Shown here piece after piece: positions 1-38,540 of a stretch of DNA of 64,000 nt (position 1 is the first letter of the stretch; each line of letters opens with the position of its first letter). The notes beneath the pieces were generated by a model, which searched no databases, had not been told where the DNA came from, and worked only from the letters and a program-made list of their open reading frames with translations. Position numbers and translations under genes: made by a program. This DNA is from Cenococcum geophilum 1.58 (Eukaryota; Ascomycota; Dothideomycetes; Gloniales; Gloniaceae): positions 1,116,001-1,180,000 of the forward strand of contig KV748223.1 of the NCBI GenBank assembly GCA_001692895.1, read 5' to 3'.

Positions 1-3000
1 AAAATTACATAAAGGATTTCATCGGTCACGTTTAAGTTAAACCTACCAGCTAAAATAAAGATCTACCCTATATAGCACATTATAATACTAGAGCTAGCAT
101 ATAGAAATATTAAGCCACCGGTTTATAAAGCAAATATATATAGAGGATAAGAAGAAGACAAATAGCAAGTTTTAAAGATCGTTAATTATAAGGATATTAA
201 CGACGAGATATAGTATAAGGTTAAGTAGACAGGCTATACTAAGACTACCTAGAAGCTACTAGAAAATTTAAAGAACGCTATAGAAAAGGTATAGAAGTAT
301 TAGAAGAGATTAGGTTAGGTAGTATTAATAAAAAAAGGATCGCTAAAGAATAAGTTACCTAAGGGGGACCTAAGAAGAGCAGTTGCCGAACTACTTAGAT
401 CTGTTTCCTTCTCTATTAGAGGAGAATCCGTTCTTTTATTACCTAGTTCCTATAGACCTTATTTTATAAGTCTCCACTCCTTAAAATAAACTTTCTTATA
501 AACCTTCTTAAGACGAAGCAGACGAGTAGACGCCGCAATTTAAGCATCTAGGGCCTTCTATTCCACGTTATAGGAACGTTCCAACTTAGTAAGGGCTTAT
601 AATAGTTTACTATTTAGCTACGCAGCAGCAGATTAAACATAAAACCCTAAGACAAATTAATTAGGGAACTAGACGACTATTAAGAGTAATAAGACGCGTA
701 TATTTAGTATTAGAAGTAGAGCGAACGTTATAGGACGAACGAATATTTGCTTTAGTATACTCTAAGTAAGAGAACGGTTGTCGCGAAGATGGGTTCGCCA
801 ACGCAATATAAACTAACCCCTCTTTTAAATAATAAGAACATAAAGACGGTATAATCTCACTAAGAGATAGTATTGCAGCGATAGTGTAGGCACAACATTA
901 GGCGTATAAAGAAGAAATTGCTTTAGGTATAATAAGTAATAATATTAACTAAATTAATTAGATAGACATTACACCTTTAGTAAATAACTTAGAGATGTTT
1001 TAAATCTTTAAGGATAAAGATAAAGAGGAGGGAGATAGTATTACGGACGCTTTAAGTACGATATTATGACTACTTAGAGAAGAGACGGAAGAAGCTAGTT
1101 AGTTAATTTAAGTACGGTCTAGGATGGAGCCAGTAGAACCATATAACGAGGAATAGTAACTAAGGTTATATAATATGCTACGTATTAAACAAGAGGAATA
1201 AGAGGAACTTATGTACCTTATATATAAGACGTATATTATATATAAGAAGGATTTTATAGGAGTACGGTTGTGTATTTAAGGACCCTTAGTCCCTACCTAG
1301 ATAGTTCCTTCCTTATAGTAATTCTTAGAATATAATTAGAGTTAATCTATTAGGTAACCACTCCACCAGTTATTATTACGTTGTTGACTTTTATACTTGC
1401 ATTTCCTACACACCTAGCCCAATAACGAGCCTATTGTAGTTCTTGCTACAAGGTTCCGTTACATTAGCTACGCGATCGCACTTCCAACATATAGGTTATC
1501 TAGTAGTTAACTAGTTAGCTTCCCTTATATTAATCAGCTATAAAATAGTATAGAAACAAATATTACTTACTACTTAATCGACTTCCTATATACCTTTAAG
1601 TCTCGCTGGAGCTTTATTAATGTACCCAATTTTAAGCCCAGCTCTTCCCACGTTATATTACTAAGCTCCTTACTATTATATAAGGCTTCTAAATTATAGT
1701 TATTCTCGTTTAAGATATCTATAATATATTCTAACTTAGTAGCTAACTCTACTAAGTTCTAATAAGGGTATTCTTAAAGCTAGTTAAAGTAGTTGTTTAG
1801 CTCTTAGGTAAAATTAGGCCTAGGTGCAATTGGGCTTATAGAAGGCTCTAGAAGTAGTACCGGCTCTATTACATAGGTCGGGGGAGGTACCCTAGGTATA
1901 GTAGGCTGTGGATATAGGTAAGGCGCGTACTAAAAGTGTGGTTGTGTTTAATACTATAGAGGATGCATCTGGTAAGGGGTATAGGGAGGGTAGCTCGGCT
2001 AAGGCGTTAGCTCCGTTTTGGCTCTATACGATCGTACCAAGCCGTCCTTTTAGCTCAGCTGTATAGCGATTCATACGGGCGGCTTATTAGGAGTAGCCTT
2101 GCCCTTTAAAATATTATTCCCCTATGCGGTTATAGTCAGTGTATTAATAGGGTGGTAATTAGCTAAATTATCTGGACTGCTACTATTAACCTAGCAACTA
2201 CGCCCGTTATTTAAATAGATTGGATTTTAGCAAGGCCATCGCATTACAATTAGTGGCCTACTATGCTAAGCAAGAACCTTAGTTAATATTATGCCTGGTA
2301 TATTTAGGCGTTATAGAGCAGTTATAGTACCACTTAAAGCCTTACCTTTCTTATTCTAATTACTAATTACCTCTAGGATACTTCTAAGTTAATTGGCGAA
2401 GGCCTATATATTTAAGGAGTCGGGTATACTAGCTTCTAAATTTAATAAATTTGACACCTATAGGAGCTCCAAAAGAGTTACAGTGACTTTAACTTTTAAG
2501 CCCTTCTTCTTCTTACCGTACTAGGCCTCTAAAAGCCGCTTTATAGCGGTAATATCTTTTATACCATATAGATTAACAAGGACTTCTTTGCGCTTAGTGG
2601 CCCGATTGTAACTGGCGGCTACCTATATTACTGCGGTAAAGTTAAATCGACCTAGAGATTTCTCGCGAACCTTATCTATCCACCTTATTAACTTAAAGTA
2701 GCGAAAGCTATATATATACACTCGCTAAGCTATATTTGCAATAGGTATATTACCCACTACTATACGCCAAATAAGCGTATAAGGAATAGGCTCCGGCTCC
2801 GGCTCCTCTAGCTCCCGCTCTGGCTCCTACATTACATCTAGTTCTAATTTAGGGGGTGACGAATATCCCAGATTAATTGCCTCTTAATTTTAACGCTCTG
2901 TAAAAATTATACGTAGAGACTTATGTAATAAAGGATTTCTTGCAGGTAGCTTCTTAAGAGGCTTTGGCTTCTTACTATTCTTCTTTCTAGCGATTTTAGA

Positions 3001-3290: not shown

Positions 3291-4992
3291 CTATACCAAG
3301 ATGCCAATTGCTTTTAGTAAGGGAGCGAGAGCCAGGGGGTGCTGGTGGTGGGCGTAGAGGTTGTATAACCTGCGACGCGGCTCGTTTCCGGAGGCTTGAT
3401 GAGGACGCCATATTGGTAAAAACACCTGCCAAGACGTCGCGATATAAATGTCAATAGAAACTAGAGCTTCATATATTTTAGAGTTTAAAAAAAGTGGTGC
3501 GCATTCGACGATATTCGATTTGTATGTGATTTTGTATATAATCAAAATATTTTAATGTGGGCGGCTCTTATCAAGCGAACTTTGCAGATGATAAGAAAAC
3601 CACTGTAAAATTCTTTGTGGCTGTGCTAGGTAACATCCACCGTCTGGCACTGAAACCACGAACCCAAGTCACTCTTACAATTTATTACAGCGATTCATCT
3701 GTAAAGATTCCTGCATCTTATGGATACCGTTCCCTGAACAAACAAAGTTCGGGACTGATGAGCCATGACACGCCATACATATCTCGAGCTACCCCGTGCG
3801 TGAGTTAAGGCTGACGGTAACGAGTTCGCTCTTGATGTTGCCATCCACGAAACCAAAACAAGTGATGGCTGCCACACTTCCACCAGCTCTGAGCTATGGC
3901 CATCTCTGCTCTAAGTATCGCGCGTTATTCATCCTATACTCGTCACCAAGCTTATCTCATGGATGCGACACGTCTCATCCAATTGGCCCTGGCTGCGCCA
4001 AAACGAAAAGTTATCTATTATCCATATATGTAAGCCCATAGTGGCTTAGAACGACAAGGAGAGGCTGAAGGCTTCCTGCTTTATGACAAATTCTATGGTA
4101 CCGGTCATATCCTGTCAGCCACGACTATTCAGTAATCCGCGGTATGCCAAGTTGCTCTCGGCTTATCACAGAATTTTCTTCCACATGTTCACCGCGTAGG
4201 AAGCTCGTATCCGTTGTGTAGTTGAAGAGATTCTTGCTGCACATATTTGTAGCTCATCTATCCAATATCTTGCAAGAATTCTCAACTGATCGCTTCTCTA
4301 ACATCTCAGAGGAGCGATCTTTAAATCTTTCTTCTACTGCAATGGTAGTAATTCTCCGTCTTTATGGAATGCTGTAATGCATAACGGGGAGGCTTGCTCA
4401 AGTAGACCGGCTACTAAGAATGTGAGCCGAATTCAGAACATCATACTTGAAAAACAGCATGATAGGTGCGCCCATAAACAGCACATTTAGAATAGGAAGA
4501 GGCTTCATATTCTAATATCTTATTACCACCATATGAAGGGAGACGTTAGCGATGGGCAAGAGACCAAGCGTCGATTTACAAGTAATGCGCTGGCCAAAAT
4601 GCGCTGGCCGGGCAAACGATTGCCGCGGGGAAGTGTTCTTACACTCCCGTAGCCGCCCCTTCAACCTCGGATCAACAACGGAAAATCCATTTGCGAGATC
4701 TTGCATGGTAGTGTATATGACTATAGAGTAAATGGATTATACGCCTTCGCACCTTCCTACTTTTGCTATACGGTTGGTCGTTTCCCTCCGGCTATCTCCC
4801 GGGCTTTTTCACTCTTGGAATCCTATCACCATTAGCCCGTACTCTGTCGCTGAGGAGTCTCTCCGGTAAAGAGCGTCGAAATTCTAAGTCCTTTCACGGG
4901 TCCATTCTTCTACTGAGCTGCATCACGAATCTGACTTAGCCTAGCTACAAACGCCGAAGGCACATAGAACATCTTCCTTCGCACACTCAACA
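3291..4992. other. Intergenic, no supported gene
   Basis: Only short unrelated frames are present. I see no conserved motif and no plausible exon chain. The last few hundred bases are the likely promoter and 5' leader of the gene at 4993. Confidence 0.5.
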
Positions 4993-6156
4993 ATGACACC
5001 GCCATCGTTTTTACGCCCGACTGCTACGTCTCTGGCGAAACGATCCTCTCAAGCTCGTAGGGGCTCTCATGGAGACGATGCTACATCTCCAGCTGGGTCT
5101 CCCACGACCTCTGTGAGAGGCGATGTTTCTCATTCAACACTTCCATTTCGTGCAAATACCTCGGATTGGTCCTCGGGAAGATTTCGAGCTGCCTCTCAAG
5201 GGAGTGCCTCTTCTCAAAATTCGAGGCAATCATCCGGCGCTAGCCATGCTCCTATCAATTCTCCGAGGGCCACATTGGAAGAAAGCTCTGATACCACATC
5301 GACTCCATCATCGCCGACTTTTATATCAAAGCGAATTCGGCACAAGGAAAGACAACAGTCGTCAAAGAGCCTTATCAATCCTGCCCATGGGGAAGTCTGC
5401 TACTTCGGCAAACTTCCTCCGGAACTTAGGGTCATGATATACAACCTCGTTCTGAACAAGCAACGACCGCTGCCAATTTGTTCATCCAGACGCCTTCCTC
5501 AGAATGGCCCTTCAGTGTGGCCAGCTTTGCTTAGAGTATGTCGTACCATCAGACATGAGTTTTCCTACGAATTTTATTCCAAAACTCCATTTGTTGCAGA
5601 CATTGATAACAATGATTTTCGTGCCGTCATGTCCTGGGTTGAGAGGCTTCCTCCCACTAGCAGAGCCCACCTCCAATACAACAATGGACTTGTCTTAACA
5701 TTTCAAATCAATGAAAAGGGTCACTTTTGGTTTCCAGACGGAAACTATGCTAGTTGGTCTGAGACTAGGTACTTCGGAAACATCTATGAAGTTCCTGATG
5801 GCTTTCGGCCTTACTTCATTTTCATTATTCGACTTTCCAAGTGGTTCCTCTGGTGTGGCGCTAGGGATGAGATGCAGCAACACATACCATGGAAGTACCA
5901 AGCTCGGGTTCAACATTGGTGGTATTGGGGCCACAAACTGCGCCACGACGATTTCATTAGAATCTTTCGTTGGACTCTAGGCATTTATTTGCAGCCTATT
6001 ATGAAATACGTCCAACTCAGCAAAGATCAGAAACGGCTTATTGCGGACGAGGCATTTTCCCTGCTGCGCAGCTTGGAGGACCTGCATGATCGGAACGGCG
6101 TCGAGCCATTTCAAATTAAATACGCTCGGTTAAGACGTTGGCTGGCCGACGTTTAG
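4993..6156 (+). CDS. 2EXR/F-box-like domain protein
   Basis: Single-exon gene of 387 residues. The first 130 residues are low-complexity, rich in Ser, Thr, Pro and Arg, and look disordered. Around residue 137 comes 'YFGKLPPELRVMIYNLVL', the hallmark start of the fungal 2EXR (F-box-like) domain, followed by 'LLRVCRTIRHEFSYEFY', the usual second half of that motif. The rest is a mixed globular C-terminus rich in Trp and Tyr. These proteins are expanded in Pezizomycotina and mostly uncharacterised; a substrate-adaptor role like F-box proteins is suspected but unproven. The ATG at 4993 follows a CAAC-rich leader and is the first in frame. No introns are needed. Confidence 0.8.
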   Translation: MTPPSFLRPTATSLAKRSSQARRGSHGDDATSPAGSPTTSVRGDVSHSTLPFRANTSDWSSGRFRAASQGSASSQNSRQSSGASHAPINSPRATLEESSDTTSTPSSPTFISKRIRHKERQQSSKSLINPAHGEVCYFGKLPPELRVMIYNLVLNKQRPLPICSSRRLPQNGPSVWPALLRVCRTIRHEFSYEFYSKTPFVADIDNNDFRAVMSWVERLPPTSRAHLQYNNGLVLTFQINEKGHFWFPDGNYASWSETRYFGNIYEVPDGFRPYFIFIIRLSKWFLWCGARDEMQQHIPWKYQARVQHWWYWGHKLRHDDFIRIFRWTLGIYLQPIMKYVQLSKDQKRLIADEAFSLLRSLEDLHDRNGVEPFQIKYARLRRWLADV

Positions 6157-9303: not shown

Positions 9304-10237
9304 TCATTTGTGACCCAAGCCAAATCCCTACACTAGTTAGTTATGCGGGGCGGTATTGAGGAGCAGCAGCGCTTACGTAAAGGGGCGATCCAAGCTATGA
9401 TTTGGAATTAGCAGGCTGATTATAATTGCGGACGAGCACTCTGCAGCATCTACTTACGCGGTTTAAGATGAAGACAACCTAATATTTTGTAATAGGTTAG
9501 CTTGCCGTTATTCATAATGCATAAGTGTGGTGAGAAGTAGCTCACGTCAGTGACACAGACTGTCTTTCTGCCACAGTGCTCTGTTCAAAGTCAGTCGGAT
9601 GATGACTTAAAATATGCGATCGTTAGGATAGGTGACATACCGACAACACACACTATCTCTCTCAACAACTACAAGGCTGAGTTAGTTCTTGTTAGGGGCG
9701 ATCGAATGGCTAGCACTAATGCTCACCAATTCCAGTCGTGCTTTGAGAGCACTGCGCGTATCGGCATAGATATTGGCTGAAATGCGTTTAACACCACCGC
9801 GACGGGCAAGACGCCTAATTTACAGATATCAACTTAGAAGGGCCTGGTCGACGGATAGCGGTAACGATAGAGTTTGACTCAAGGCAGCGATACAAGTCCG
9901 CTCGCCAGGTGAGTTGCAGCCGTGCAGTCTCGTGTCTGGATCTGGTTGATGGCAAGATTGAAAATGACGCACTTTATGTCACCTTTAGTGACTGCTTGGA
10001 TATTATCCCGTAGGACTTTTCTATTGAAAATGTCAGATATGCAGCAACGCAGAGTTTGAAGTGACTGGATTGAGGCTGCAGTGCTAGACTTGAGTGCGGC
10101 TTGTCTACTGACCTGTGTCTTTTGAATGCCTTGCCTTTTCCGAGGCCCTTTCCAAGACCTGCCGCCCCGGGGCCACCGTATGGTAGACGAGATGCTGGCT
10201 GAGGAATGGGGCGCTGACTGGTGGAAGGTTTTGCCAT
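9304..10237 (-). CDS. Divergent histone H4 variant
   Basis: Eight exons on the minus strand: 10237-10113, 10020-9973, 9814-9727, 9668-9641, 9580-9546, 9478-9458, 9394-9377 and 9327-9304. All introns are GT-AG with matching phases. The 128-residue product carries the H4 fold in order: 'GLGKGKAFKRHRKVLRDN', 'RLARRGGVKRIS', 'ALKARLE', 'EHCGRKT', 'TDVVFILNRLG' and 'YGFG'. The N-tail differs from canonical H4: about 24 extra residues rich in Pro, Ser and Gln replace the start, and the acetylatable repeat is shortened and altered. Other changes are 'TKGDIKR' for the usual TKPAIRR and Tyr-Ala-Asp for Tyr-Glu-Glu. Canonical fungal H4 is about 103 residues with few introns, whereas this gene has seven introns and exons as short as 18 nt. 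Divergent H4 variants are known in filamentous ascomycetes (Neurospora hH4v); function is not established. It probably incorporates into nucleosomes with H3. Confidence 0.88.
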
Positions 10238-10693: not shown

Positions 10694-12002
10694 TTACGAG
10701 ATAAACGTAGCCTCCGTGAACATAGCCCCATCTTCCTTAATCCCCTCCTCACCAATATGAAGGTCGAGCGTCAACTTAGGAGCAAACTGATAGATGTACG
10801 GCTTTGTTCCCGCAGCACTCGCAATGATCGCCTTGACGAAGCCAGGAACCTCCGCCATAACATCCACACGGTCTAGCCGTGTACCAAGACTGCCACTGAG
10901 GTCTGCGCGAGCTTCCTTTCCATCTGCTGTCTTTCCTTCCCAGTGATAGTTGGTAGCGCTAGGCTCTGGCCACTCGTTTTCGGGGTCATCCTTTACCTCT
11001 GTATGGGTGGCCGAGCCAGTACAACCAGCGAAGAGCAGTTTGCCATCGGTTGCCACTCCTCCAACTCGAACTACAGTCGATCCATATGAAGGTGGTGTTG
11101 TATACTCCATCATAACTGCAGAGTAGGTGGGTGATTGAAAATTGGCAAAATTCCAGCGAGCGGCTATCACGATCATCAGCGAGTCTTTTCTATGCAAAGG
11201 GAATTGATCACAGCTTACCCGCATGGTGCGGCTTCATTCCTTGCAAGGCGTGAATGAAGAGGCCAAGCCCCTTGAAATCCACCTCTCCTGCCTTTGTAAT
11301 AATGCTCCCCTCCACCTTGCACCTTGGCCAGAAAGCATGCCGCATCGAGCCCCACGGACTCTTCGGATCAGTTCCATAGTAACTTGTGCCATTCTGTCCT
11401 GCAACAAAACCGGGTGCTGCCTTTGTAAACTTCAAATTGACTAGGCTATTCTCATTGGTTGCTGATTTGATGGTGTAAAACGATCCGTCTTCGGATAGCT
11501 CCATGGAGCAGCCATCAGCGAAAAAGCTGAATTTGTCGTCATCGAATCCGTAATTGTCGAGAGGGTCGGAGGACCAAAGATGTGGGGTCTTGCCGTCGGG
11601 GTAGAAGATTTTGCTGTTGAACTGGCATGTAGTTCGGAGGCCTCTGCAAGCAATAAGTACTTAGCAAACACCCTGACTGCGGAGAATTGGCTTTCCTCTC
11701 ACGCAACGTTGCTGTAGATGACTTGAGCCATGCCTATGTGCCCGCTATCTCCGATCATATAGAATGTTTGCGTCTCGACGCATGTTGACTCCATGGCCAC
11801 CCATTTGAGCTCATTTTTGGTCAACTCGGTGTAGGGAGCATCCTTTGCTTGCTGTTCCACAGTTTGGATGGCTGAAGGGCCATATATGGGCTCCTGGGTG
11901 CCAGCTACATTGGCCAGCCTACATCGCGGGGCAGCACGTCTAAGTGAGGGTACAGAGGATGTTGGAGAGCGGTACTGACTGCTGTTTCGCCCAGTTAAAC
12001 AT
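10694..12002 (-). CDS. svf1: Svf1-family survival factor (ceramide-binding lipocalin-like)
   Basis: Four exons: 12002-11980, 11918-11703, 11643-11219 and 11163-10694. The first exon is only 23 nt and starts 'MFNWAKQQ', joining to '[13 protein letters not shown]', which is the normal Svf1 N-terminus. Later stretches 'YGTDPK.PWGSMRH', '[15 protein letters not shown]', '[15 protein letters not shown]', '[15 protein letters not shown]' and '[13 protein letters not shown]' match the family. The product is 377 residues, the usual length. Svf1 in yeast aids survival under oxidative and cold stress; it is a double lipocalin-like protein that carries ceramides between ER and Golgi and binds membranes through its N-terminal helix. 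The splice junctions all restore family sequence, so confidence is high. Confidence 0.93.
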
Positions 12003-13139
12003 TTTTTGTTGACGTCGAGGACTATATCCAATACGGTCTTGTAAGCAAGAGCAGGGAAAGGTCGTGAAGGTGGTGGTGTTGATGCTTGTTGGGTGGGAGT
12101 CAGTGGAGCTTAGGCAGTGTGTGTACTGTTGAAATTTGCGGCGAAAAAGTTTGCAGCAATGAGGGAATCAGTCTGAAGAAGCGCTCCGCTCCCTGCTCAA
12201 TTCTGGCGGCGACGGACACGAGTTTGCGATTTGACGCGAGACAAAGCTTGGCATCCAAATCTTCGTCACCGCTCAGCGTTTGACCTTTAATATCAAAGAA
12301 TACACATAAAGCCCAAGTTTATATTTTAACTTTTAGTATTCTAATTATGATAGATTACAAAAGATATTTATTAATTTATTAAGTTAAAATATTATTGTTA
12401 AGTAGTTAAATACATATAAGAAAGTGGTTCTCATACAAGATTCGCCACAGCACCAAAGGTCTAGGACCAAGGGGGAGCTACTGCCCCACCACAAGAGCCC
12501 AATACGAGCCCCGATTATAGCGCTCACCACGAGAACAACGCCTCCAACTGCGAGCGCTGCCTTCTTCTTGCCTTCTTCCTCCTCCACTCCCCACCCTAGG
12601 ACGCCATTGGAACTACAGCTGTGCTTTTGGCGCCGCTGCTTGCAAGAGATCTACGTGGCCCACTTCCATCCTGCACGAGTGGCTTGGTTCAGCACAACCA
12701 AACGACTAGAGGGGCCGGTACATCCGTTACGCTGTCGGTTTAATCTTAACTTCGTTCATATCGCAGCAATATTGTCCGAAAACTCTGCAGACACGTTGGA
12801 GACCTTGGTCAAAGCGATCGGAGAATTGTCGACAATCTTCTATTGCTGCTAAACAGCTTTGCATATCTCAGCTATCGCCGCGTCTGACTCCGCCAACCGC
12901 ATGCCCGCTCCCTGAAACAAACCTTTGACTGAGGCTTAGCGGCCTCGATACAAGCACTTCGTTTGGGATACGGTTTGATTGCCAACTTGTAAGGCCAGTC
13001 ATTATTATCAATCTCGCGCTACCCCGCCTCTGCCGGTCTTCTCCCAGATGACTATCGAAGGATTGGAGCATGTGGTAGGTCTAGATCACGGATTGCTGAT
13101 TAAAATCTGACCAGAGAGCACCGCCCAACACCTTCAAAC
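12003..13139. other. Divergent promoter region with an AT-rich patch
   Basis: Lies between svf1 (-) and the kinase gene (+). About 12300-12420 is strikingly AT-rich with TTAA-type runs, like a small RIP-affected repeat fragment. A short minus-strand frame at 12384-12587 has a hydrophobic helix but no supporting context, so I do not call it. Confidence 0.4.
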
Positions 13140-15669
13140 ATGGCTTCCACTGAAAGTAACCAGCCTCAGCAGGCAGTGCGCTTCAGCTCTGTCAACGAAG
13201 AGATCTCCCCGGAAACGTCGCTTCAACCTGTTGAGACTCTTACATCGACCTCTGAAACCCCCAGAGAAGAGTTCAGTCCTGAAGTTCAAGAAGAGATCCG
13301 CAACTTGTCTATGAATCTCCAGAAATCAAGATGTCAGGCAAGACGAATGGAAAACTTTTCTTTTGAACCAGTCTCTCTTCCCGCATCACGAGTAAGCACA
13401 ATTTTATCATGGTAGTATTTGCCCCGCTGACAGATTACCTTAGGCTCCATCACCATCCCCAGCTTCTCGAACTCCCTCAGGTCACTCTGCATATCATTTA
13501 GGGACGACCATGAGACCATCACCTCCGGCCTCCACCATGCATTCACCTCCTCTGACACCTGCTGGAACGCTTTCACAAGATGGGAATGCTAGTCCTGGTA
13601 TAGAACAGAGAAAAGCACATATTGACCCGGCAATGATGACACCGCAAATTTCGCCCCCACACGAACCTCCGCCTACGTCAATGGATATACTACATAGTGA
13701 GAAAAAACCTGAATCGTCTGTGCTACCTGCTTCTCCTAGGGAATCACCACTGCCATCGCCCCGGCCAAAATCATTGTCGGATGTAAGCGGAGTTGTTGCA
13801 ACACATCCAAAACATGCTCCTACCTTTACTGTCGGTCCTACTGGTGACTCTTTACCTCCCTCGAGAGATACAAGCCCTTCCGGATCACCCGGAACCCACA
13901 CACCTGGAAATCAAACACCAGGTACTTCCACTCCTACGTATAGCAGGCCATTTACACCTTCGGGTGATAAAGACGACCCATACGCCCGCAACAAGCGGCC
14001 TCCACAGCCCCGGAATCTTGATGCTCTTGACGCCAGATTCATTTTCGGTGGGAGGGACTCACGAAAAAGCCATAGTTACACGTCATCAACGCCAACGGCC
14101 GCAATACCCCGCTCTCGAGCTTCTTTAGAGGTGCAAGGCAAAGAGGAAAAACGACATAGTTTTTTTGGTGGCGGAAAGCATCAAAACACCAGCGAGGATA
14201 GTGACTTCCGGCCTAGCTTGGGGGTTAAAAAGCAGGGGTCAATGTCAGAGCTGAAACGATTCTTCAAACTCGGAGGCCACAAGCATTCTAAAGAAAAACG
14301 GGCGCAATCACCCGCTCCGTCTACGAAGAGCAGCAAGACTTCTAAATCGTCCAAATCATATAAAGCGGGAACCCGAACTCCACCATCGTCGCAAGGATCA
14401 ATAAGCGTTCCGTTTGCGGATGACCACGGATTGCAAAGCAAATATGGAAAGTTCGGAAAGGTTTTGGGCTCTGGTGCTGGAGGATCCGTTCGACTCATGA
14501 AGAGAAGCAGCGATGGAGTCACATTCGCAGTAAAACAATTCAGAGCCAGGCATTCATACGAAACGGAACGCGAGTACAGCAAGAAGGTCACGGCAGAGTT
14601 CTGCGTTGGATCTACACTCCATCACGGCAACGTTATCGAAACCATGGATCTTGTCCACGAGAAGGGGAATTGGTATGTTGTCATGGAGTACGCTCCATTC
14701 GATCTCTTCGCCATCGTCATGACTGGCAAGATGAGTCGGGAGGAGATTAGTTGTGCTACACTGCAGATTCTCAACGGAGTGACTTATCTGCATAACATGG
14801 GCCTGGCACACCGGGATCTCAAGTTGGATAACGTCGTGGTCAACGAGCATGGGATCATGAAGATAATAGATTTTGGGAGTGCCGCAGTATTCCGCTATCC
14901 ATTTGAGAACGAGATAGTCTCGGCTAGTGGTAAGTGCCTCTCCGTGAGGTTGAATAGATAGATGATCTAATACGAGCTAGGAATTGTTGGCTCTGACCCT
15001 TATCTTGCACCCGAGGTATATGATCTCTCGAAGTACGACCCTCAACCTACGGATGTCTGGTCCCTCGCCATCATCTTCTGCTGCATGACACTCCGCCGGT
15101 TCCCATGGAAGGCACCTCGTCTCTCTGATAATTCGTACAAACTCTTTGTCTCGCCACCCAATGATGGACCCAAGCGGATCGAACAGCCTTCAAGGTCGAA
15201 CGTGGAGCTCTCGGAAGCAGCTGCGGATGACCGCCGTCAATCAGGACCGTACTCGGAACCAGCATCTCGCCTGCCCTCTGATGTCCCGAATAACACAGGG
15301 CATCACCATCACCACCACCATAGAAACAGGGAAAATCACCTGGAACCAGCGACAAACGAAAACCGGCCGACAAGTTCAGCGTCGACCAGCCAAAGCAAAG
15401 AGCAGCAGCAGCAAGTCATCAAAGGTCCGTGGCGGTTATTACGACTATTGCCTCGCGAGAGCAGACATATCATTGGACGCATGCTGGAGCTGGACCCGAA
15501 GAAACGTGCTACGATGGACGAGATCCTCGAAGACCGATGGGTTTCGACCAGCTCGATCTGCCGGCAGGAAGAAATTGGGACCATCATTCGAGCACTCGGA
15601 CACGAGCATACTCTTGAGCCCGGGTCGGGCGTAGGGGCGCCATCGACGACGCAATCAAACAAGAAATAA
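13140..15669 (+). CDS. Ser/Thr protein kinase, Hal4/Sat4 type
   Basis: Three exons: 13140-13391, 13444-14929 and 14981-15669, giving 808 residues. The first 440 residues are Ser/Pro/Thr-rich and look disordered. The kinase domain follows: glycine loop '[14 protein letters not shown]', catalytic Lys in 'FAVKQF', 'HRDLKLDN', 'IIDFGSA', and after the second intron '[10 protein letters not shown]' and '[10 protein letters not shown]'. An insert of about 90 residues with a His run (near 15301-15322) splits the C-lobe before '[20 protein letters not shown]'. The overall layout, long tail plus this kinase type, fits fungal Hal4/Sat4 (HAL5/NPR1 group) kinases that regulate K+ transporters and nutrient permeases at the plasma membrane. 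The His/Gln-rich insert is probably lineage-specific low complexity. The family call is from motif similarity. Confidence 0.88.
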
Positions 15670-17134: not shown

Positions 17135-18600
17135 ATGGTCCGCCAGCTACCTCCGCCGCATCTCAAACACATCCCTCCTCCTCCTCCTCCTCCCCCCGCC
17201 GCTGCTGCTGTGCCGCCAAAGTTCTCTGCCGACGTCGTCGTCAACCACTACTACCACGGCGTTGGCGATAAATTGATTCCTTCCATCCCAGGTTTTCGGA
17301 CCAGTGCTGGTGAGTGCGCATTTGCAAAAGGTGCTGCAAGCTGCGGGTGTCGTACAGAAACTTTTCCCTGCGTCACAATTTTCCTGCCCTCTCGGACTTG
17401 CGCACGCGACTCCATCTCTCTCGCTCCCCAACACACCCACCACTTCAATTCCCTCAAAAAACCGTAGAAACCCTCAGAGAAACCCTCTCCAAGTTCTCAG
17501 AAGCTTAAAACCAACCCGCTAACCCTGCCTCTCAGCCTTCCTCACCTCCCTCAGCGCCAACCTCCGCCTCCCAGACGACGACCTCCTACCCTCCCCGATG
17601 TCCACACCCTCGAGCATGCGCAGCAGCGCCTCCTCGCTCTCGCTCCCGCCTCCCCCCGTCTCAACCTCCACAGCCCTCTCCGCCAACCCCTCCCCTGCCT
17701 CGACCGTTCCTACACCCCACACCCGCACCTCCCCCAACGCCGCCACCTCCGCAAACACCGACGACGCCGCCGCCCCCCCGCCGCTGCCCGAACTACGAAC
17801 CTACGTCGCGACAACCGACGACGACCGCGTCGCAGGCCTGAAGCTCGTCGCCGACAGCATCGCGCAGCAGCGACAGCTGGCGTCGCGTGCCCTGCTCTCG
17901 CACCCCGCGCACCTCGCCCTCTACGTCACGGTCCTGGCCGCCATCGCGCAGTACCTGTACCGCCGCGCCTCGGACCTGCCGCTCGTCATGACCACCTGGG
18001 CTGGCGTCACCATGGCTGTCCTGGCTGGCGTGCGCTGGGCTGCTGGCGGCTACATCTTCCTCGCCGAGGAGGTCAATTGGGAGTGGCTTGGGGAGGACAC
18101 GATGGTGGTTGTGCGGTGGGGGGAGGAGGTTATCGGGGCGTTGGTGCTGGGTTGGGCGGATGAGGTGGGCGGCGGGCGGAGGGGGAAGGGGAGGGGGAAG
18201 AAGTGCGGGAGGGGCGTGGTGAGGGCGTGGACGGTTAGGCTGAAGTATCGGGGCAAGGGGATTGGAGAGGGTTTGTTGGAGGAGGCGGTGAGGGTGTGTA
18301 TGGAGAGGGGGGCCGAGGGGGTTGAGTTTGCGGAGGATCATGCGAGTGAGTTGGCCCCTTTTTTCCCTTTTTTTTGGGAGGCGGTTTGTTGCGGTTTTTG
18401 TTTTCTGGTCTTTGGTTTGGGAGCGGGGGCTTTAGGGCTCGGAGGCGTTGCAAGGTCTAGGCTAACCTTTTTTTGCGCCAGATTCGAAGCGGTTGCTGCC
18501 GAAGTTCTATAACGGGTTTTTGGACAAGCGGGACAGGAGGGCGCGGAAGGCGTTGGAGAAGGTTGCGAATGAGAAGGGGAATTTCGGGCAGAGGAGGTAG
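17135..18600 (+). CDS. GNAT-fold N-acetyltransferase with membrane segments
   Basis: Three exons proposed: 17135-17309, 17536-18345 and 18482-18600, giving 367 residues. The N-terminus has a Pro run and a Ser/Pro-rich linker. Two hydrophobic segments follow ('LALYVTVLAAIAQYL' and 'WAGVTMAVLAGVRWAAGG'). The acetyltransferase core comes next: 'MVVVRWGEEVIGALVLG', then the CoA-binding motif 'LKYRGKGIGEGLLEEAV' (R-G-K-G-I-G). The last exon restores 'NSKRLLPKFYNGFLDKRDR'. Substrate is unknown. The 226-nt first intron is long for this window and may hide another small exon, so the N-terminus is less certain than the rest. GC content is very high across the middle exon. Confidence 0.75.
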
Positions 18601-22963: not shown

Positions 22964-25900
22964 ATGACAAGAGTCAATCATCGTGCGCCAGCTGCACAAC
23001 CAAGCGGGTCTCTTAACAGAGTTACGAAAGCTCGCAAAAAGAAACCATATAAAATCCTTCTTGAATCTGTTACTCAAGAAAAGAAGAAACTTCACTCTGC
23101 AGTTGGTCGACTCTCCCATCAGTGCGCTTCTGGCAAAAGCTGAAAATCCTTCCAGATTTCATACGATGCACATGCACCAGTCGGATATTCATTCGTCCCC
23201 GCCGGTACACCAGATCTCACAGAATATTGCAAAGATCTCTGCAGAAAACGAGGACTCGTAGCTCACATTGTTTCGGTTTGTGCAACCCCTTTTCTTTCCT
23301 GTCAAGTTGGCTTTACTTACGTCTCGAAAGGCCAAACCAAAAAACAAAGCCCACGTAAATCCCGAGAAGATTGCACATCATGTGCATAGAATAGGACATC
23401 ATTTCCCAAATGAAGTTGTGGACCAAGCCTGCGACTGGCTTGGCTACAGTTATCGTGGAGGAACTTACCAGAAAAATCTAGATGGTATCGCGACCTCGCG
23501 ATTAGCTCGAAGCCTTGCCACTCATGGCAGTCGGATGGGCCTCCACGGCCGACCGGGCACTGTCCAAGAAACAAGCCAACAGATTCGAGCGGCCATTCGC
23601 GACCTCTTTCCCAAAATTCCCGATGAGGATCTAGAAGCTATCGTGAAGCATGCTTTTCGAGAAGTAGCCGGCCAGTATGTCTTCCATGTTTGTCTCGACT
23701 GACTTTTTCCAGGGTACCAAGAGGGTAGGTAATGCTCAAGAGTTGCCATTGCCGCGCCGGGTCCAGCTCGCGGTAGTAGCCCATATTCGCCATGAATATA
23801 CCGACTACGACCGACTTTTGAAGGTCGGCTCGTATGTAGATGCCAGATCGAAAGTCGAGCAAGCCTCGCTTGATCAGCTGATGAAATGGCGTGGCGAAGG
23901 TGATACCGGAATGCCCGAGATGGAAGAAACCTTCCGCGAAGTCATCGTCCTTGATGACGATGAGGATGAGGACAACGAAAGTGAAAATGCCGAGTCCACT
24001 GCCGACGGTCGAGAACATAGCCTGGAGATTATTTCAAGCCAAGCCACAGCCCATGAACTTCAAGCTAACGATCTTGTTGATGTTGAGTGGATTGACGCTC
24101 ACAGTACTCACCGCATGCCTGGGAAAACGTACTTTGTCCGTCGCGCCCCACGTCAGATTCCTTTAATTCAGAGGCATCCCCGCCCCGTTTACCAAACCAT
24201 GCAGCCTGCCCTCAGAACTGTTACGGATCGTCGTGTAGAAAATGTGCACGCAATATCTCCCAACCCTAAACCTCATTCAAGGCAAATCTCACACCCTCAC
24301 CGGCCAGAGCCACGATTACAGTACAGAACCGAACCTGCTTACGAGCGGGGCCGCCAGTTGGTGGCAAACCAGTGAGTGTGATTTCTCGTGTCGGATCATC
24401 TGAGCTTACTTATACGCTCTAGTAGCCCCGAAGCGCCCACCGCGATAGCCTCGGAAAGAGAGCAGCCCCCTCGATTTTTGGAATCGAACGGGGTGCTGTA
24501 CGAAGTAAGTATTCTACTAGCTGTATTAATTTATAGGCTGCACCTCGATAGACCCTGCGAGTCTCAATTTCAACCACTGATCAAGCATAGCTCCAATCCC
24601 GACCGGACACCCACAGCACTGCACCCACTCACAGCTCTATGCGTCCAGGTGTGGTAGAGTATAATAATCCTCAGCGTTTTCCTCAGCCTGTTTCCCACTC
24701 AATCCCTGCCCCCCAGTATACCCGGAGAGAGGTTATACCTGCCACATACTCATCAACCGGAAGGAGTAACGAACATGTTCCTTTACATGACAGCCCCCAG
24801 AAAAGATACCTCCGTCGCGCGGAGCACATAATTGGTGAAGGCGACGTTGTTATCCCATCAATAGAACGGGATGCCTTAGAACCAGAGAATATGCCATCAC
24901 TTCATGCCTTAAGTATTGCGCAGCAGCCTCAGGCTAACCAAGCGCCTGCACCAGCTTCAGAAAGCATATTTTCAAGGCCGAGAACCTTATATACAGAAGC
25001 CAATCCTATCAACAATGCATCGGACCAGCCTCTTGCTCAATATCAACATCCACATGGATCCAAGCGCAAGTCATGGCCTGCGCCTATGTCTGATTATTCA
25101 AGCGGTACCGGAAGTACACTGCCAAAGCGGCAGAAGTCCATCCAAGGTAACACAACTGTACACGAACGTCTACGTGAAGCTTCTGTGGGCGTACCCAGTA
25201 GGCATACACATGCACAATTGCAGTACCCTCGCAACGTCGGGGTGCAAAGCTCCGAACATTCAAGGATTATTGATCTTACTTCCAGTCCACAGAGCCCGAA
25301 TAATCGGAGATCCGATGCCTTGTTCACGTCTTTACAATCAGCGAAACACACTTTGCCCATTAGCAGAACACCTGTAAATCCCCCCTCGGAATACAGCTCA
25401 TTGCATCGCAGTCAGTACAACACATCAGACCCCTACGACAAAATCCGTATGCAAGGGATGTCATTGACGTCCCACGGCGTAGAAAGGCGCGGCACACTTG
25501 ATCGGCCTCCCTCTGCCCCTGGGACGGGAGTTGGAGCACCGCATCCTGCTCGAAATGATGATAGTTCGGTCCACAAACAGGAACGGTATAATCTGCGGAA
25601 TATGAATAGCGGCAGGCATGTGCAAAGCAATGCTCCGCAGCCCACTAAGCAACATCCTCGTAATGGAGCCCAACTCACATCCAGACCGGATGATCAAGAC
25701 CCTCTGCCTCAGTCCCGTTATGAACCAGCGCACCCATTTCAACGAAAGCAAACCAATAGAGAACCCATAACTATATCCGACAGCCCAGAAAAGAAAAAAT
25801 CTCATACTAGTGCTAGGGGGCAAGCCAAGCTTCACCGTACGCATTCGGGAGATCAACATCATGGCTCTGGAATGCTCGAGTCGCGTCGAATTCGACGATA

Positions 25901-30056: not shown

Positions 30057-32046
30057 TTATATACCCATCCCTAACCCACAGAGTTCGAATAGAATTGGAT
30101 TACCTTCCACTGCCAACCAACCAATGCCTACAACGTTCACAGGTTAGTGATGGGAACCATTCCGCGATTATGGACGACTAACCAGAATATACTATAAGCT
30201 TCGTAATTACCTCAACGTCGTATCTAACTCGAGGTCTTTCAAGTCTCATAAACATTTCACGGTCTTCTTTCTCTTCATCTCCTCGTATGTCTGTCTTTCT
30301 GTCGAGGTCACTAGTGATATTGGCATCACTTTCTGGAGGCGTGACAGGTCTCGCAACCGGCTCTCCTGTACCCATCATTTGTTCATAAGAGTGGACACGG
30401 GAAGATATGGGCGTTGGAAGTAAGTCTACGCCTAGAGGGACATTTTCTCTTGCGCTGGAAGGAAATCTCGAGTTTGTCGAGTATCCAAAGTGCACCTCTT
30501 TACTATCGGGACTCTTAGGTTTGCCAGGTGTTCCCGGCCTTTCGGCTTCTGGGGCCGAGATACTCTCTCTTCGTCGTTTGTTTCGGTAAGCCAGAGTCTC
30601 ATATGCATCTGCCGCTGACTGCGGTCCCACGGAAACCGATCTTTTCCGTGGATGGCTGAGGTTTGTAAGGAGACGAGGAATATCAGAAGCCGACGGAATG
30701 ACATTGTCGTCTCCTCGTAGTTTCGGAACACTCTTATATTGCCTGCGATATTCGATGTCAGTATATATATACCTAATCGAGTGAGCGCATCAACTTACGA
30801 AGCTGTCAAAAAGAACGCTCGAGGAAGGTCTAGACGGGCATGTTCAAGAACTCGGAAAATAGGCGGAAGGATCTTGAAAAGCGCTGGCTTCATGATACCT
30901 CTCCATGCAAAAATAATACCAACGCCCATGCAAATGCGAAGACATGCTTTCAGCCACCCAATGCGTTTGAGATCGAATGGAACAGTGGAAGGGATTGGGT
31001 AATCCCAGGCAAACCCAGTGCCAGCATAATGCCATGCACCTATTTGACATCCAATAATGACTCCTGCAAATGCAACGCTATCATCGAAGCATGGACAATC
31101 ATCTGCAGGCTCCGGATGGATTCGCACCAGGACGAGGATGATTAGCGTGGCAACCAAAGGGTTCATGTATGAGCCTTGACAAATCCAAGCATCTAAAGCA
31201 TTGCCATAGATTATCTGTATGGCAGAGAGCCCGGCTCCGAGGATGCTTCCAACTACCACATCAAAAAAGCCGTGCATACCACAATACAGTCTTCCGAAAA
31301 CGATGGAGACAGCATAGAAGTAAAAAAGTATTTGCAATGCCAAGTGAACAGTCGGACGGTGGGTCTCTGTTGTGGTTCGCAACATCTGAATGGCATATAC
31401 AGCTACCGACACAGCATTGGTGGAGTGAGTCGACGGAAATCCATACTCCAGCGCTGTGGAGCCAGACATCGTGATCCGATGTAACGGGGGAGACAATGGT
31501 CGGGGTAGACATAGCATGTCCTTGATAAATCCACTCCAGATGACCCCAGAAGCTAGTACATGAACCATCCTTGGAGTTCAGGTCAGTAATGAGAGCTTGA
31601 GTTCTGACCAATTTCACATACGCTCTCCCTATACTTGTATATCCACACCAGAAGAGGATTGGCAGCATAATCATGAAGAAGGTATGAGTGCCCAGATTCG
31701 CAGTAAAAGCGAAATAAGAGTCCAGTGCAGGGGATCGCAATGTGTCCTGCAAAAGGGCGAGATATGGGGTCTCCAGTCGAACAATTGGTATCAGTCGCTG
31801 CCTCAAGGTATTCCGCCATTTCGGAAGCCTGTACGCATCTGTTTACGCAACAACACTCACATTAGCTTGTTTCCTCTGCTTCTGTGTGTATAGTCGGTAT
31901 CTGACGCCGAGGGAGACTTGAGACGCACAGTGATCATGGTCGCGCATTCCCGCATCAAGCCGCGGCTCCTTCACGGTGGTAGTTGGCAGAACCGAACTCC
32001 CATTTCCTCCCTCGCTCTTGTCAGTTCCATCATTTCGCGTAAACAT
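30057..32046 (-). CDS. lcb3: LCB3-type sphingoid base phosphate phosphatase, with in-frame stop
   Basis: Exons 32046-31622, 31569-30799, 30742-30183 and 30127-30057 (about 608 codons). PAP2 motifs are clear: 'KDMLCLPRP', 'GFPSTHSTNAVS', and 'FGRLYCGMHGFFDVVVG'. Multiple membrane helices surround them, and a disordered tail precedes 'LIVYSG' and the final 'GWLAVEGNPILFELCGLG'. The family dephosphorylates dihydrosphingosine-1-phosphate in the ER and feeds long-chain bases to ceramide synthesis. The first exon reads 'RLYTQKQRKQANVSVVA', then TAA at 31845-31843, then directly 'TDAYRLPKWRNTLRQRL' in the same frame. No GT-AG intron of plausible size removes this stop while keeping frame. The allele may be truncated to 67 residues, or the base is an error. 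Apart from this stop the gene looks fully intact. Confidence 0.85.
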
Positions 32047-35797: not shown

Positions 35798-36970
35798 TCA
35801 CCACCACATATGGCATTGCAGCCACTTGCGCTTCGCCGCGTCCCAGTCAGGTGCGACTAGAACCTTTAGGGCTTGCTCGGCAGTTTTAGGATACTCCAGG
35901 TCGTTTACCTCTTTAAATTCGGAATGCAATGGTAGATTATTATCTTCGGACCCTGGTGAAATTTGACATCCATTACAGGATGCAGCATTGACGCTGCCGA
36001 AATAGTACAATTTAGGGGTGCTAATCAGGGCGACAAGCTGACGCGAGGTTATCCGATGATCAGGATTGGGATCAAGCATTAGAAATGCCAGATCGGGAAG
36101 GGCAGCGCCATGGCGTGCAAATCTGTCCTTTGGACGAGGAGTAGGCTTGACAATGACGAACCAATGGCCCCATAGGTGCCATATCCACTGAAGAATTACC
36201 AGAGTATTCTCGGCGTAAGCAACAGTGCCAGTCTTCTCCTCACGAAAACGACGAAAGCGCTCACGGGACCCAGGAGGCCCAATTAGCGCTGTGCCCATCT
36301 CTAGAAACACGCAGCCAAGAGAGAAGATATCCGCGGCACGTCCACGGCGCGCATCATCTTTAAGAGCCTCCGGCGCAACGTAAGCACGAGTCATTGGTCC
36401 GAAAGGGCCATTGGTTCCTGTTGTCAACCCCTCGGGAACTATTTTAGATATACCAAAATCGGTAAAATATACAGCGCCTTCCTTAATCAGGATATTGGAA
36501 GGTTTGATATCCCGGTGCTTCACTCTCATCTCATGGAGATAGTCGAGACCCTGGAGGAGGCATCCTGTCCAGCTAAGAAGATGTTCTCGAGCTTGATCCC
36601 CCTGCTCACCATTTCCCATACTATCAATCTGGCTAAGGAATTGTTGAAGGTCTGTTTCTGCGACCGGTACCATGATAATACCGAATAATGTTGTCCAAGT
36701 GTATGTTCCAATAAGCTTTATTATATGTCGATGGCAAAGTCGATGAATAATGCGTGCCTCTTCTCGAAGTTGCTCAATCATCTCTTGGCGCTGAGGTCCC
36801 CATCGCAAGATGACTTGCTTTCGCGCATAGCATTCTTTAGTGGGGTCCCCTTTCTTCATCACTTCATCCACCGAGCCCCACCCCCCGTGGCCTAGAAGCC
36901 GTAAACTCTGGTAAGGATCCTCATCTTCGAGTATAAAAACTTCATGTAGGTCTTTAATGGCACCGGACAT
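35798..36970 (-). CDS. Single-exon Ser/Thr protein kinase, lineage-specific
   Basis: One frame of 390 residues with a full kinase core: 'RLLGHGGWGSVDEV' (glycine loop), 'YARKQVI' (catalytic Lys), 'REEARIIHRLCHRHI', 'HRDIKPSNILI', 'YFTDFGISK', 'AYVAPEAL' and 'ADIFSLGCVFLEMG'. The expected catalytic residues are all present, so it should be active. A 75-residue C-terminal tail contains 'CNGCQISPGSEDNN'. The lack of introns, unlike neighbours, and the repeat-rich flanks suggest an accessory kinase of the kind expanded in filamentous fungi. The substrate is unknown. Hit positions: Lys near residue 51 and Asp of HRD near residue 155. Confidence 0.82.
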   Translation of the reverse strand: MSGAIKDLHEVFILEDEDPYQSLRLLGHGGWGSVDEVMKKGDPTKECYARKQVILRWGPQRQEMIEQLREEARIIHRLCHRHIIKLIGTYTWTTLFGIIMVPVAETDLQQFLSQIDSMGNGEQGDQAREHLLSWTGCLLQGLDYLHEMRVKHRDIKPSNILIKEGAVYFTDFGISKIVPEGLTTGTNGPFGPMTRAYVAPEALKDDARRGRAADIFSLGCVFLEMGTALIGPPGSRERFRRFREEKTGTVAYAENTLVILQWIWHLWGHWFVIVKPTPRPKDRFARHGAALPDLAFLMLDPNPDHRITSRQLVALISTPKLYYFGSVNAASCNGCQISPGSEDNNLPLHSEFKEVNDLEYPKTAEQALKVLVAPDWDAAKRKWLQCHMWW

Positions 36971-38540
36971 TGGTGGATCAAATGCTCCTTGGATCCTGTA
37001 CTAGTCATACACCAAATACCGAGTGTGCTGCTCGCCAGGATGTGCAGGACTTGCAACGGTGGGGTAGGCGGTGCACAATGAGGGTAGAACACCGTCTGGG
37101 AGGGTGGTGTAGGTTTGATGCCAATCGCGAGCGTGCTGTTCAGGATGTTGTGTTGCATGCATACGCCTTAACAAGGATCGGGGTTTGAAGAAGGCAACAC
37201 CGAGACACGTGCTCGCTTGGCTGCTTGATATACATCATTCAGTTCAATGTAGGGGTGCAGTACAGGACGCTCGATTGTTATGTACGATGCTAGTCGTCGC
37301 GAGGATACTACTTAGAATAGCAAATTGACAGTTTCAAATGGATCCTGCTTGATACTCACCTGCATCAATTCCCTTGCACAGATAAGGTGCTATATATTGT
37401 AGCCCGTGCGTGGGGTCAAGAACATTAAACACCACCAAGATGGTGCATAACTACATATCTAATGATATAGACCTTGTGCAGCCCACTTAATATCCTGTTT
37501 CCAAAAATCGGGTCACAATAAGGCCACCCCTAGAGCTCATTGAGGGTTTTAGTGATGCGGTAGAACGGCTTACCGCTTATGCATGCACCTCTTTAATTAG
37601 TGTACACGGGCCGCATTTTATAGACCGTTATTATCTGTGCAAGAGATATATAATAATTAATGTATAATACCAGGGCTACTCGGCGCTTGGCCAAACCCCG
37701 TAAAGGTCAATACCAAGATATCTAATTCCGGTAGTGCACCACGAGTGTGGTTAGCTTGTGGGGCGATTGAAAATCCGCCATGGAATCAGGGACCACGCTG
37801 CTCAATCAAGCAATAGTTAGCAGGAGCCAATGTAATCCAGGTCGCAGTTCGCACGTCGTGAGCATCAGTCAAGTAAACTAGTGAACAGCCTCATAATCAA
37901 ATTGGGCACAAAAACTATGCTGCTCGAGTTCGTGCTTCTTATTTAATTTTACCTAATACAGTTTTAAACAACACCACTGACTTTTTATTGCTAATGAGAC
38001 CGACCGAGAGAACAACTTAACTTCAACCCCATTGCCCGCCGCCTTCGTCGTCATGCCACTTGTCGATAAAAAGAATAATACAAAAGAGTGGCAGTATATT
38101 CAGCCGCTGTTACCGAATCAGAAGAGCTTGACGACCGGCCTCACGGCTATAGACAACCAACCATCCATGCAATGCAATACGAAACGCCTGTATGAACAAA
38201 GGAAAATGTAACAGCATGCCCGCCAGCCTTCATTTCAAAACCCCTCAATTCGCCGTGTGATGCAATATGCCATAGTGTTTAAGGACTGTACAGAAGAGGA
38301 ACTCCCTTAATGAAGAGCAGGGATTTATTAGGAATTTAAGGGAACAGTTGAAATTGTGCTTTGGGTAATGTAAGAGCTAGTAAATGATGATCGCAATGGT
38401 CTGTAAAAGGCTACTCCAGAGGCCAAGAGAGCGAGAGGCTCCGACTTACGGTCCCAAATCCTGGAGTGGCTAACCAAAGAGCAGTAGCTCCAAAAGTGCG
38501 GCACGAATAGTATGATATCAACCACTCAGCAGGACTACCT
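36971..38540. other. Intergenic, no supported gene
   Basis: About 1.6 kb without a credible frame or exon chain. Several stretches are AT-rich with scattered stops. The right end may be the 3' untranslated region of the Ca2+-ATPase gene. Confidence 0.5.

What the first reader, a model, noticed from the sequence alone, without database searches (positions are those of the whole stretch)
9304..10237. Divergent histone H4 variant hidden in eight tiny exons
Piecing exons together gives a nearly complete H4 fold with a non-canonical N-terminal tail, changed residues after 'TK', and seven introns in a 387-nt coding sequence. No ordinary ORF search would find it. H4 is among the most conserved proteins known, so a variant with a replaced tail could mark specialised chromatin, for example at centromeres, heterochromatin or in meiosis. 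The altered tail removes or moves sites equivalent to H4 K5, K8 and K12.
Basis: partly seen in the sequence, partly recalled or inferred. Interest (0 to 1): 0.82.

Follow-up and report, generated by a model that had tools for sequence, protein, structure and literature searches.

The report
Known fungal histone H4 variant, H4E
This is an intact eight-exon gene for H4E, a histone H4 variant already described in many filamentous ascomycete fungi and still without a known job, so the gene is real but largely ordinary.

Summary
On the minus strand, 10237 to 9304, eight exons joined by seven GT-AG introns give a 387-nt coding sequence for a 128-residue H4-like protein. A spliced alignment with the genome's own H4 scores 219; the best of 206 background tiles scores 59, the best of 500 shuffles 58. 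Of 96 PDB sequences matched, the 60 shown are named histone H4, best E 2.2e-31. The search found one such gene and two canonical H4 genes in this genome.

It is already explained. Flipphi et al. 2024 (PMC10878826) described H4E (hheA; Neurospora H4v) in most Pezizomycotina species. The window gene matches their gene plan in its 88-nt exon, 63-nt block, Dothideomycete 18-nt exon and longer tails, with svf1 next door; one published intron is absent and one extra is present. The dynein neighbour lies on the same contig, about 773 kb away.

The centromere, heterochromatin or meiosis idea has no support; in Aspergillus nidulans deletion gave no phenotype, sexual cycle included. The tail claim is partly wrong: the K5 equivalent is gone, but K8, K12, K16 and K20 align to lysines.

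The parts
10113..10237 (-). Exon 1 (125 nt): start codon, 21-residue N-terminal extension, GKGLGKGKAFKRH tail; ends in phase 2
9973..10020 (-). Exon 2 (48 nt): RKVLRDNIQAVTKGDIK (first and last codon split); as long as published H4E exons 2 and 3 together (29-32 plus 16 nt) without the intron between them; ends in phase 2
   Evidence: that an intron was lost is inferred
9727..9814 (-). Exon 3 (88 nt): RLARRGGVKRISANIYADTRSALKARLEL; same length and phases as published H4E exon 4
9641..9668 (-). Exon 4 (28 nt): LLREIVCVV; first part of a 63-nt block between phase-0 introns
9546..9580 (-). Exon 5 (35 nt): EHCGRKTVCVTD; second part of the 63-nt block, after a phase-1 intron
9458..9478 (-). Exon 6 (21 nt): VVFILNR
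9377..9394 (-). Exon 7 (18 nt): LGSPLY; the 18-nt exon described for Dothideomycetes
9304..9327 (-). Exon 8 (24 nt): GFGLGHK and stop; C-terminus three residues longer than canonical H4
10697..12109 (-). Neighbouring svf1 gene (three open stretches matching the Svf1 N-terminal and C-terminal domains; ends are those of open frames, not of a gene model), same strand, upstream of H4E
   Evidence: PF08622 E 8.3e-52 and 6.5e-08, PF17187 E 1.9e-61

Best explanation
The gene is the H4E (hheA) orthologue of a large-genome dothideomycete, probably the ectomycorrhizal fungus Cenococcum geophilum. It makes an H4 variant, likely of low abundance, that most likely pairs with H3 and enters a minority of nucleosomes. 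The N-terminal extension and the loss of the canonical end remove the sites nearest the terminus (R3, K5), while the KRHRK basic patch is kept; changes in the C-terminal half (Y72V, Y88F, K91N, R95S) may loosen docking of H2A-H2B. Shown here: the gene, its protein and its match to the H4E gene plan and one neighbour. Shown by others in A. nidulans: good expression under nitrogen starvation at 37 C, nuclear location, contact with H3, no rescue of canonical H4.1. Inferred: nucleosome incorporation here, the effect of the substitutions, and continued function in this species.
For: Exon/intron reconstruction with splice and branch signals; chance excluded; H4 matches in PDB; exon lengths and phases agreeing with the published H4E text (88 nt; 63-nt block; 18-nt Dothideomycete exon; 48 = 32 + 16); 0 of 7 introns coincide with an intron of this genome's two canonical H4 genes; svf1 adjacent and the only DHC_N2 dynein hit of the genome on the same contig, svf1 and nudA being the published H4E neighbours; one H4E-like locus found beside two canonical H4 genes of identical protein sequence. 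Between H4E and canonical H4 synonymous sites are saturated (pS 0.85) while pN is 0.32 and 63 of 103 residues are identical, so the fold was under constraint for most of its history. In a neutral simulation an intact gene survives 5% divergence in 2413 of 20000 trials and 10% in 273 of 20000. Function in A. nidulans: PMC10878826.
Against: No transcript was seen. Pfam gives the spliced protein only a sub-threshold hit (CENP-T_C, 14.2 bits against a cut-off of 28.1). No H4E sequence from another species could be aligned, so orthology rests on gene structure, synteny and the paper's text. The dynein gene is not adjacent but about 773 kb away. Published intron i2 is absent and a phase-1 intron splits the 63-nt block. 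The pairwise pS/pN comparison covers the deep past and cannot show that selection acts now. The figure legend of the paper gives 60, 18 and 21 nt for the exons after the 88-nt exon, whereas its text gives a 63-nt exon; the window gene fits the text. The A. nidulans H4E tail has two Lys and two Arg, this one 6 and 4 in 42 residues.
Confidence: 0.93

Rival explanations
1. A recently inactivated H4E copy: intact in sequence but no longer transcribed or under selection.
For: H4E is absent from several groups (Penicillium, Botryosphaeriales, Ophiostomatales) and its deletion in A. nidulans gave no phenotype; no RNA evidence here.
Against: Start, stop, 14 of 14 splice dinucleotides and 6 of 7 CTRAY branch sites are intact; at 8% neutral divergence only 674 of 20000 simulated genes stay intact.
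Confidence: 0.05
2. An H4 variant of a separate, new kind, duplicated from canonical H4 in this lineage.
For: Lysines aligned with K8, K12, K16 and K20 are kept, unlike the A. nidulans H4E tail, which has two Lys and two Arg; one extra phase-1 intron and one missing intron relative to the published model.
Against: Shared exon lengths and phases, svf1 neighbour, saturated synonymous divergence from both canonical H4 genes of the genome; Flipphi et al. report intron gain specifically in Dothideomycetes.
Confidence: 0.02
3. A chance assembly of H4-like pieces, not a gene.
For: Seven introns in 387 nt leave much freedom when exons are pieced by eye.
Against: Score 219 against maxima of 59 and 58 in the two nulls; PDB E 2.2e-31.
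Confidence: 0.001

Closest known systems
H4E / hheA of Pezizomycotina (Flipphi et al. 2024, PMC10878826)
   Same: Multi-exon plan unlike canonical H4, 88-nt exon, 63-nt block, 18-nt Dothideomycete exon, longer N- and C-tails, conserved fold and basic patch, svf1 next to it
   Different: Published intron i2 absent; a phase-1 intron splits the 63-nt block (whether other Dothideomycetes share it was not seen); lysines aligned with K8, K12, K16 and K20 kept; dynein gene not adjacent
Neurospora crassa hH4v
   Same: H4v is named by Flipphi et al. as the N. crassa H4E orthologue
   Different: Sequence not available here; no direct comparison made
Canonical histone H4 (two genes in this genome)
   Same: Histone fold; 63 of 103 aligned residues identical
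   Different: Different intron positions, 21-residue N-terminal extension, F insertion before the K16 equivalent, longer C-terminus
H4 variants of trypanosomes, rice, Oikopleura, human H4G
   Same: Diverged H4 proteins (search listing; discussion)
   Different: In other lineages; sequences not compared here

Membership tests
H4E (hheA) | Conserved H4 histone fold with diverged, longer N- and C-terminal tails | tested here: met
H4E (hheA) | Intron/exon plan different from canonical H4 | tested here: met
   0 of 7 intron positions shared with the C3 and C22 canonical genes (canonical positions corrected)
H4E (hheA) | 88-nt exon entered in phase 2 and left in phase 0, then a 63-nt coding block bounded by phase-0 introns | tested here: met
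   Exon 3 is 88 nt; exons 4+5 total 63 nt (against text; the figure legend there says 60)
H4E (hheA) | Dothideomycete form: 18-nt exon near the 3' end | tested here: met
   Exon 7 is 18 nt
H4E (hheA) | Phase-1 intron i2 between exons of 29-32 and 16 nt | tested here: not met
   One 48-nt exon instead. The paper reports intron gain and loss in different taxa, so I do not take this position as defining the family
H4E (hheA) | Location between nudA and svf1 (Eurotiomycetes, Dothideomycetes) | tested here: inconclusive
   svf1 adjacent; dynein heavy chain on the same contig about 773 kb off
H4E (hheA) | Sequence clustering with other H4E proteins | not testable with these tools
   No fungal relatives held; the paper itself found no stable tree
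H4E (hheA) | Spliced transcript, nuclear location, interaction with H3 | not testable with these tools
   Shown in A. nidulans
Canonical H4 | Near-invariant sequence and canonical intron positions | tested here: not met
   63 of 103 identical; no shared introns
CENP-T C-terminal histone fold | Match to PF15511 over its cut-off | tested here: not met
   14.2 bits against 28.1

The most novel reading that the evidence does not exclude
In this fungus H4E has kept an acetylatable H4-like tail (lysines aligned with K8, K12, K16, K20) behind a new 21-residue N-terminal cap, while losing several side chains that, from recalled structure, face H2A-H2B; it could serve as a conditional histone marking less stable nucleosomes during starvation or symbiosis.
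Probability: 0.12. Interest if true: 0.5.

Novelty: new member of a known kind. Interest (0 to 1): 0.22.

Why it matters
H4 rarely has variants, and H4E is spread through a whole fungal subphylum with no function yet found (PMC10878826). A gene model in a large-genome dothideomycete, with a tail that keeps more modifiable lysines than the A. nidulans protein, adds a useful comparison but changes no broad view.

Tried and rejected
Considered and rejected: chance exons; a CENP-T-like protein (the only Pfam hit of the spliced protein is CENP-T_C at 14.2 bits, under the 28.1 cut-off; PDB matches shown are H4); a lineage-specific duplicate (synonymous sites saturated against both canonical H4 genes). 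An alternative third exon, with residues like AIRR about 100 nt further along, was considered while reading and dropped, because it has no GT donor in the right phase and the TKGDIK reading has proper splice signals and phase.

Other histone-fold places in the genome: the CENP-T_C model gave 6 matches: two on C71 that look like the CENP-T gene itself, the canonical H4 genes on C3 and C22, and one each on C65 and C8. In the DNA held for the C65 and C8 places (L003, L004) neither canonical H4 nor H4E finds a tblastn match at E up to 10, so I do not count them as H4 genes; what they are was not worked out.

So it is unknown here whether this species is already in that list; the main text does not name Cenococcum. 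Loci L020 and L021 were fetched and not analysed.

In one search the printed position of the second canonical intron used a wrong exon length; the corrected positions are.

Full report
Observation. Reading the minus strand of the window from 10237 down to 9304 gives eight exons of 125, 48, 88, 28, 35, 21, 18 and 24 nt, total 387 nt including the stop, and a 128-residue protein. The seven introns are 92, 158, 58, 60, 67, 63 and 49 nt long; all 7 start GT and end AG. Read through, 5 of 7 contain a stop in frame, and the other two have lengths that are not multiples of three. A branch-site motif CTRAY starts 13 to 22 nt before the 3' end in 6 of 7 introns (intron 2 has only TTGAT); 135 of 4123 AG sites on that strand of the window have CTRAY starting 13 to 24 nt before.

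Chance. A simple spliced alignment, with GT-AG introns of 40 to 250 nt, of the genome's own H4 fold (88 residues) gives 219 for the region. The 206 tiles of 1200 nt from both strands, minus-strand tiles overlapping the gene left out, give a mean of 39 and a maximum of 59; 500 dinucleotide shuffles give a mean of 37 and a maximum of 58.

Identity. phmmer against PDB sequences gives 96 distinct sequences at E up to 0.001; the 60 shown are named histone H4 (one of them also H2A), best E 2.2e-31 over residues 27-124. Pfam gives only a sub-threshold CENP-T_C hit. In the genome (177,193,698 bases, 162 contigs) the protein gives 10 matches: four pieces of its own gene on C48, two each at H4 loci on C22 and C3, and two insignificant ones (E 3.6 and 5.3) (the tool calls such counts lower bounds). 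The C22 and C3 genes encode the same canonical 103-residue H4; the C22 gene stands next to an H3 gene on the opposite strand. The CENP-T_C model also rang on C71, C65 and C8; the C65 and C8 loci show no tblastn match to H4 or H4E.

Comparison with canonical H4. 63 of 103 aligned residues are identical. Synonymous sites are saturated (pS 0.85) and pN is 0.32; the two canonical genes differ by pS 0.53 and pN 0.004. Residues aligned with K8, K12, K16, K20, K31, K44, K59 and K79 are lysines; R3 aligns with A, K5 with G, R35 with K, K77 with G, K91 with N, R95 with S, Y72 with V, Y88 with F. The tail up to the K20 equivalent has 6 K and 4 R in 42 residues. That Y72, Y88, K91 and R95 face H2A-H2B is recalled structural knowledge, not tested here.

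What is known. I read the abstract, the Results and the Discussion of Flipphi et al. 2024 (PMC10878826) and passages elsewhere; figures and supplement were not seen. [quoted passage not shown] crassa as the orthologue. The published plan has a phase-2 intron i1, exons of 29-32 and 16 nt, a phase-2 intron, an 88-nt exon, then phase-0 introns; their text speaks of a 63-nt exon between phase-0 introns outside Eurotiomycetes (the legend says 60) and of an 18-nt exon in Dothideomycetes, with intron gains in that class. The window gene has a first phase-2 intron, a 48-nt exon (32+16 without i2), a phase-2 intron, the 88-nt exon, a 63-nt block split 28+35 by a phase-1 intron, then 21- and 18-nt exons with phase-0 introns. 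In Eurotiomycetes and Dothideomycetes hheA sits between nudA and svf1. Here svf1 is next to it at 10697-12109; the only DHC_N2 dynein hit in the genome is at C48:350687-351892 on the same contig, about 773 kb from the gene, as one would expect if gene order has been shuffled within a chromosome.

Organism. The genome size is close to the 177.57 Mb given for Cenococcum geophilum in PMC4392786 (passages found through a search listing 10 of 20 papers). Together with the Dothideomycete exon this points to Cenococcum; it is an inference, no marker gene was compared.

Function. In A. nidulans, H4E is nuclear, interacts with H3 in a split-YFP assay and is well expressed under nitrogen starvation at 37 C. 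Neither deletion nor overexpression from the alcA promoter gave a phenotype; selfing and outcrossing were normal after deletion. Expression from the canonical H4.1 promoter gave a mild growth phenotype, and H4E did not replace H4.1. My reading is the same protein doing the same unknown job here: a minor H3 partner in a few nucleosomes, with the sites nearest the terminus gone. I found no evidence for centromere, heterochromatin or meiosis roles in what I read.

Is it alive? Intactness argues for it: under a neutral simulation (substitutions only; start codon, splice dinucleotides and absence of stops required) 2413 of 20000 genes survive 5% divergence, 674 of 20000 survive 8%, 273 of 20000 survive 10%. 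A recent loss of function remains possible.

Literature searches: 'histone H4 variant' or 'hH4v' (66 papers hold at least one, 25 listed), 'H4E, histone, fungi, hheA' with at least 3 of 4 (1 paper), and Neurospora H4v terms (2 papers).

Noticed in passing
window 1-2000: G+C falls to 0.34 against 0.48 for the window, as in repeat stretches of fungi with repeat-induced mutation; possibly a decayed transposon on the side where nudA would be expected.
   Followed up: no
window 4945-6153 (+): Open frame with a 2EXR domain (Pfam E 3.9e-08); of the four open stretches scanned on the side where nudA would be expected it is the only one with a Pfam hit.
   Followed up: no
window 13444-52739: Ordinary genes: 1450-residue P-type cation ATPase frame at 38544-42893 (-); protein kinase domains at 13444-15666 (+) and 35801-37000 (-); an acetyltransferase domain at 17523-18509 (+); MFS transporter at 46902-47912 (-); GDA1/CD39 phosphatase at 50790-52739 (+); PAP2 at 30798-31577 (-); DUF2293 at 23668-24372 (+).
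   Followed up: partly
L018 (C22) and L019 (C3): The two canonical H4 genes encode identical proteins but differ by pS 0.53; the C22 gene has one more intron than the C3 gene, in the codon for R96 (Met = 1).
   Followed up: yes
L003 (C65) and L004 (C8): Weak matches to the CENP-T_C histone-fold model over its cut-off (30.4 and 29.9 bits; L004 with one stop inside); no tblastn match to H4 or H4E. Not identified.
   Followed up: partly
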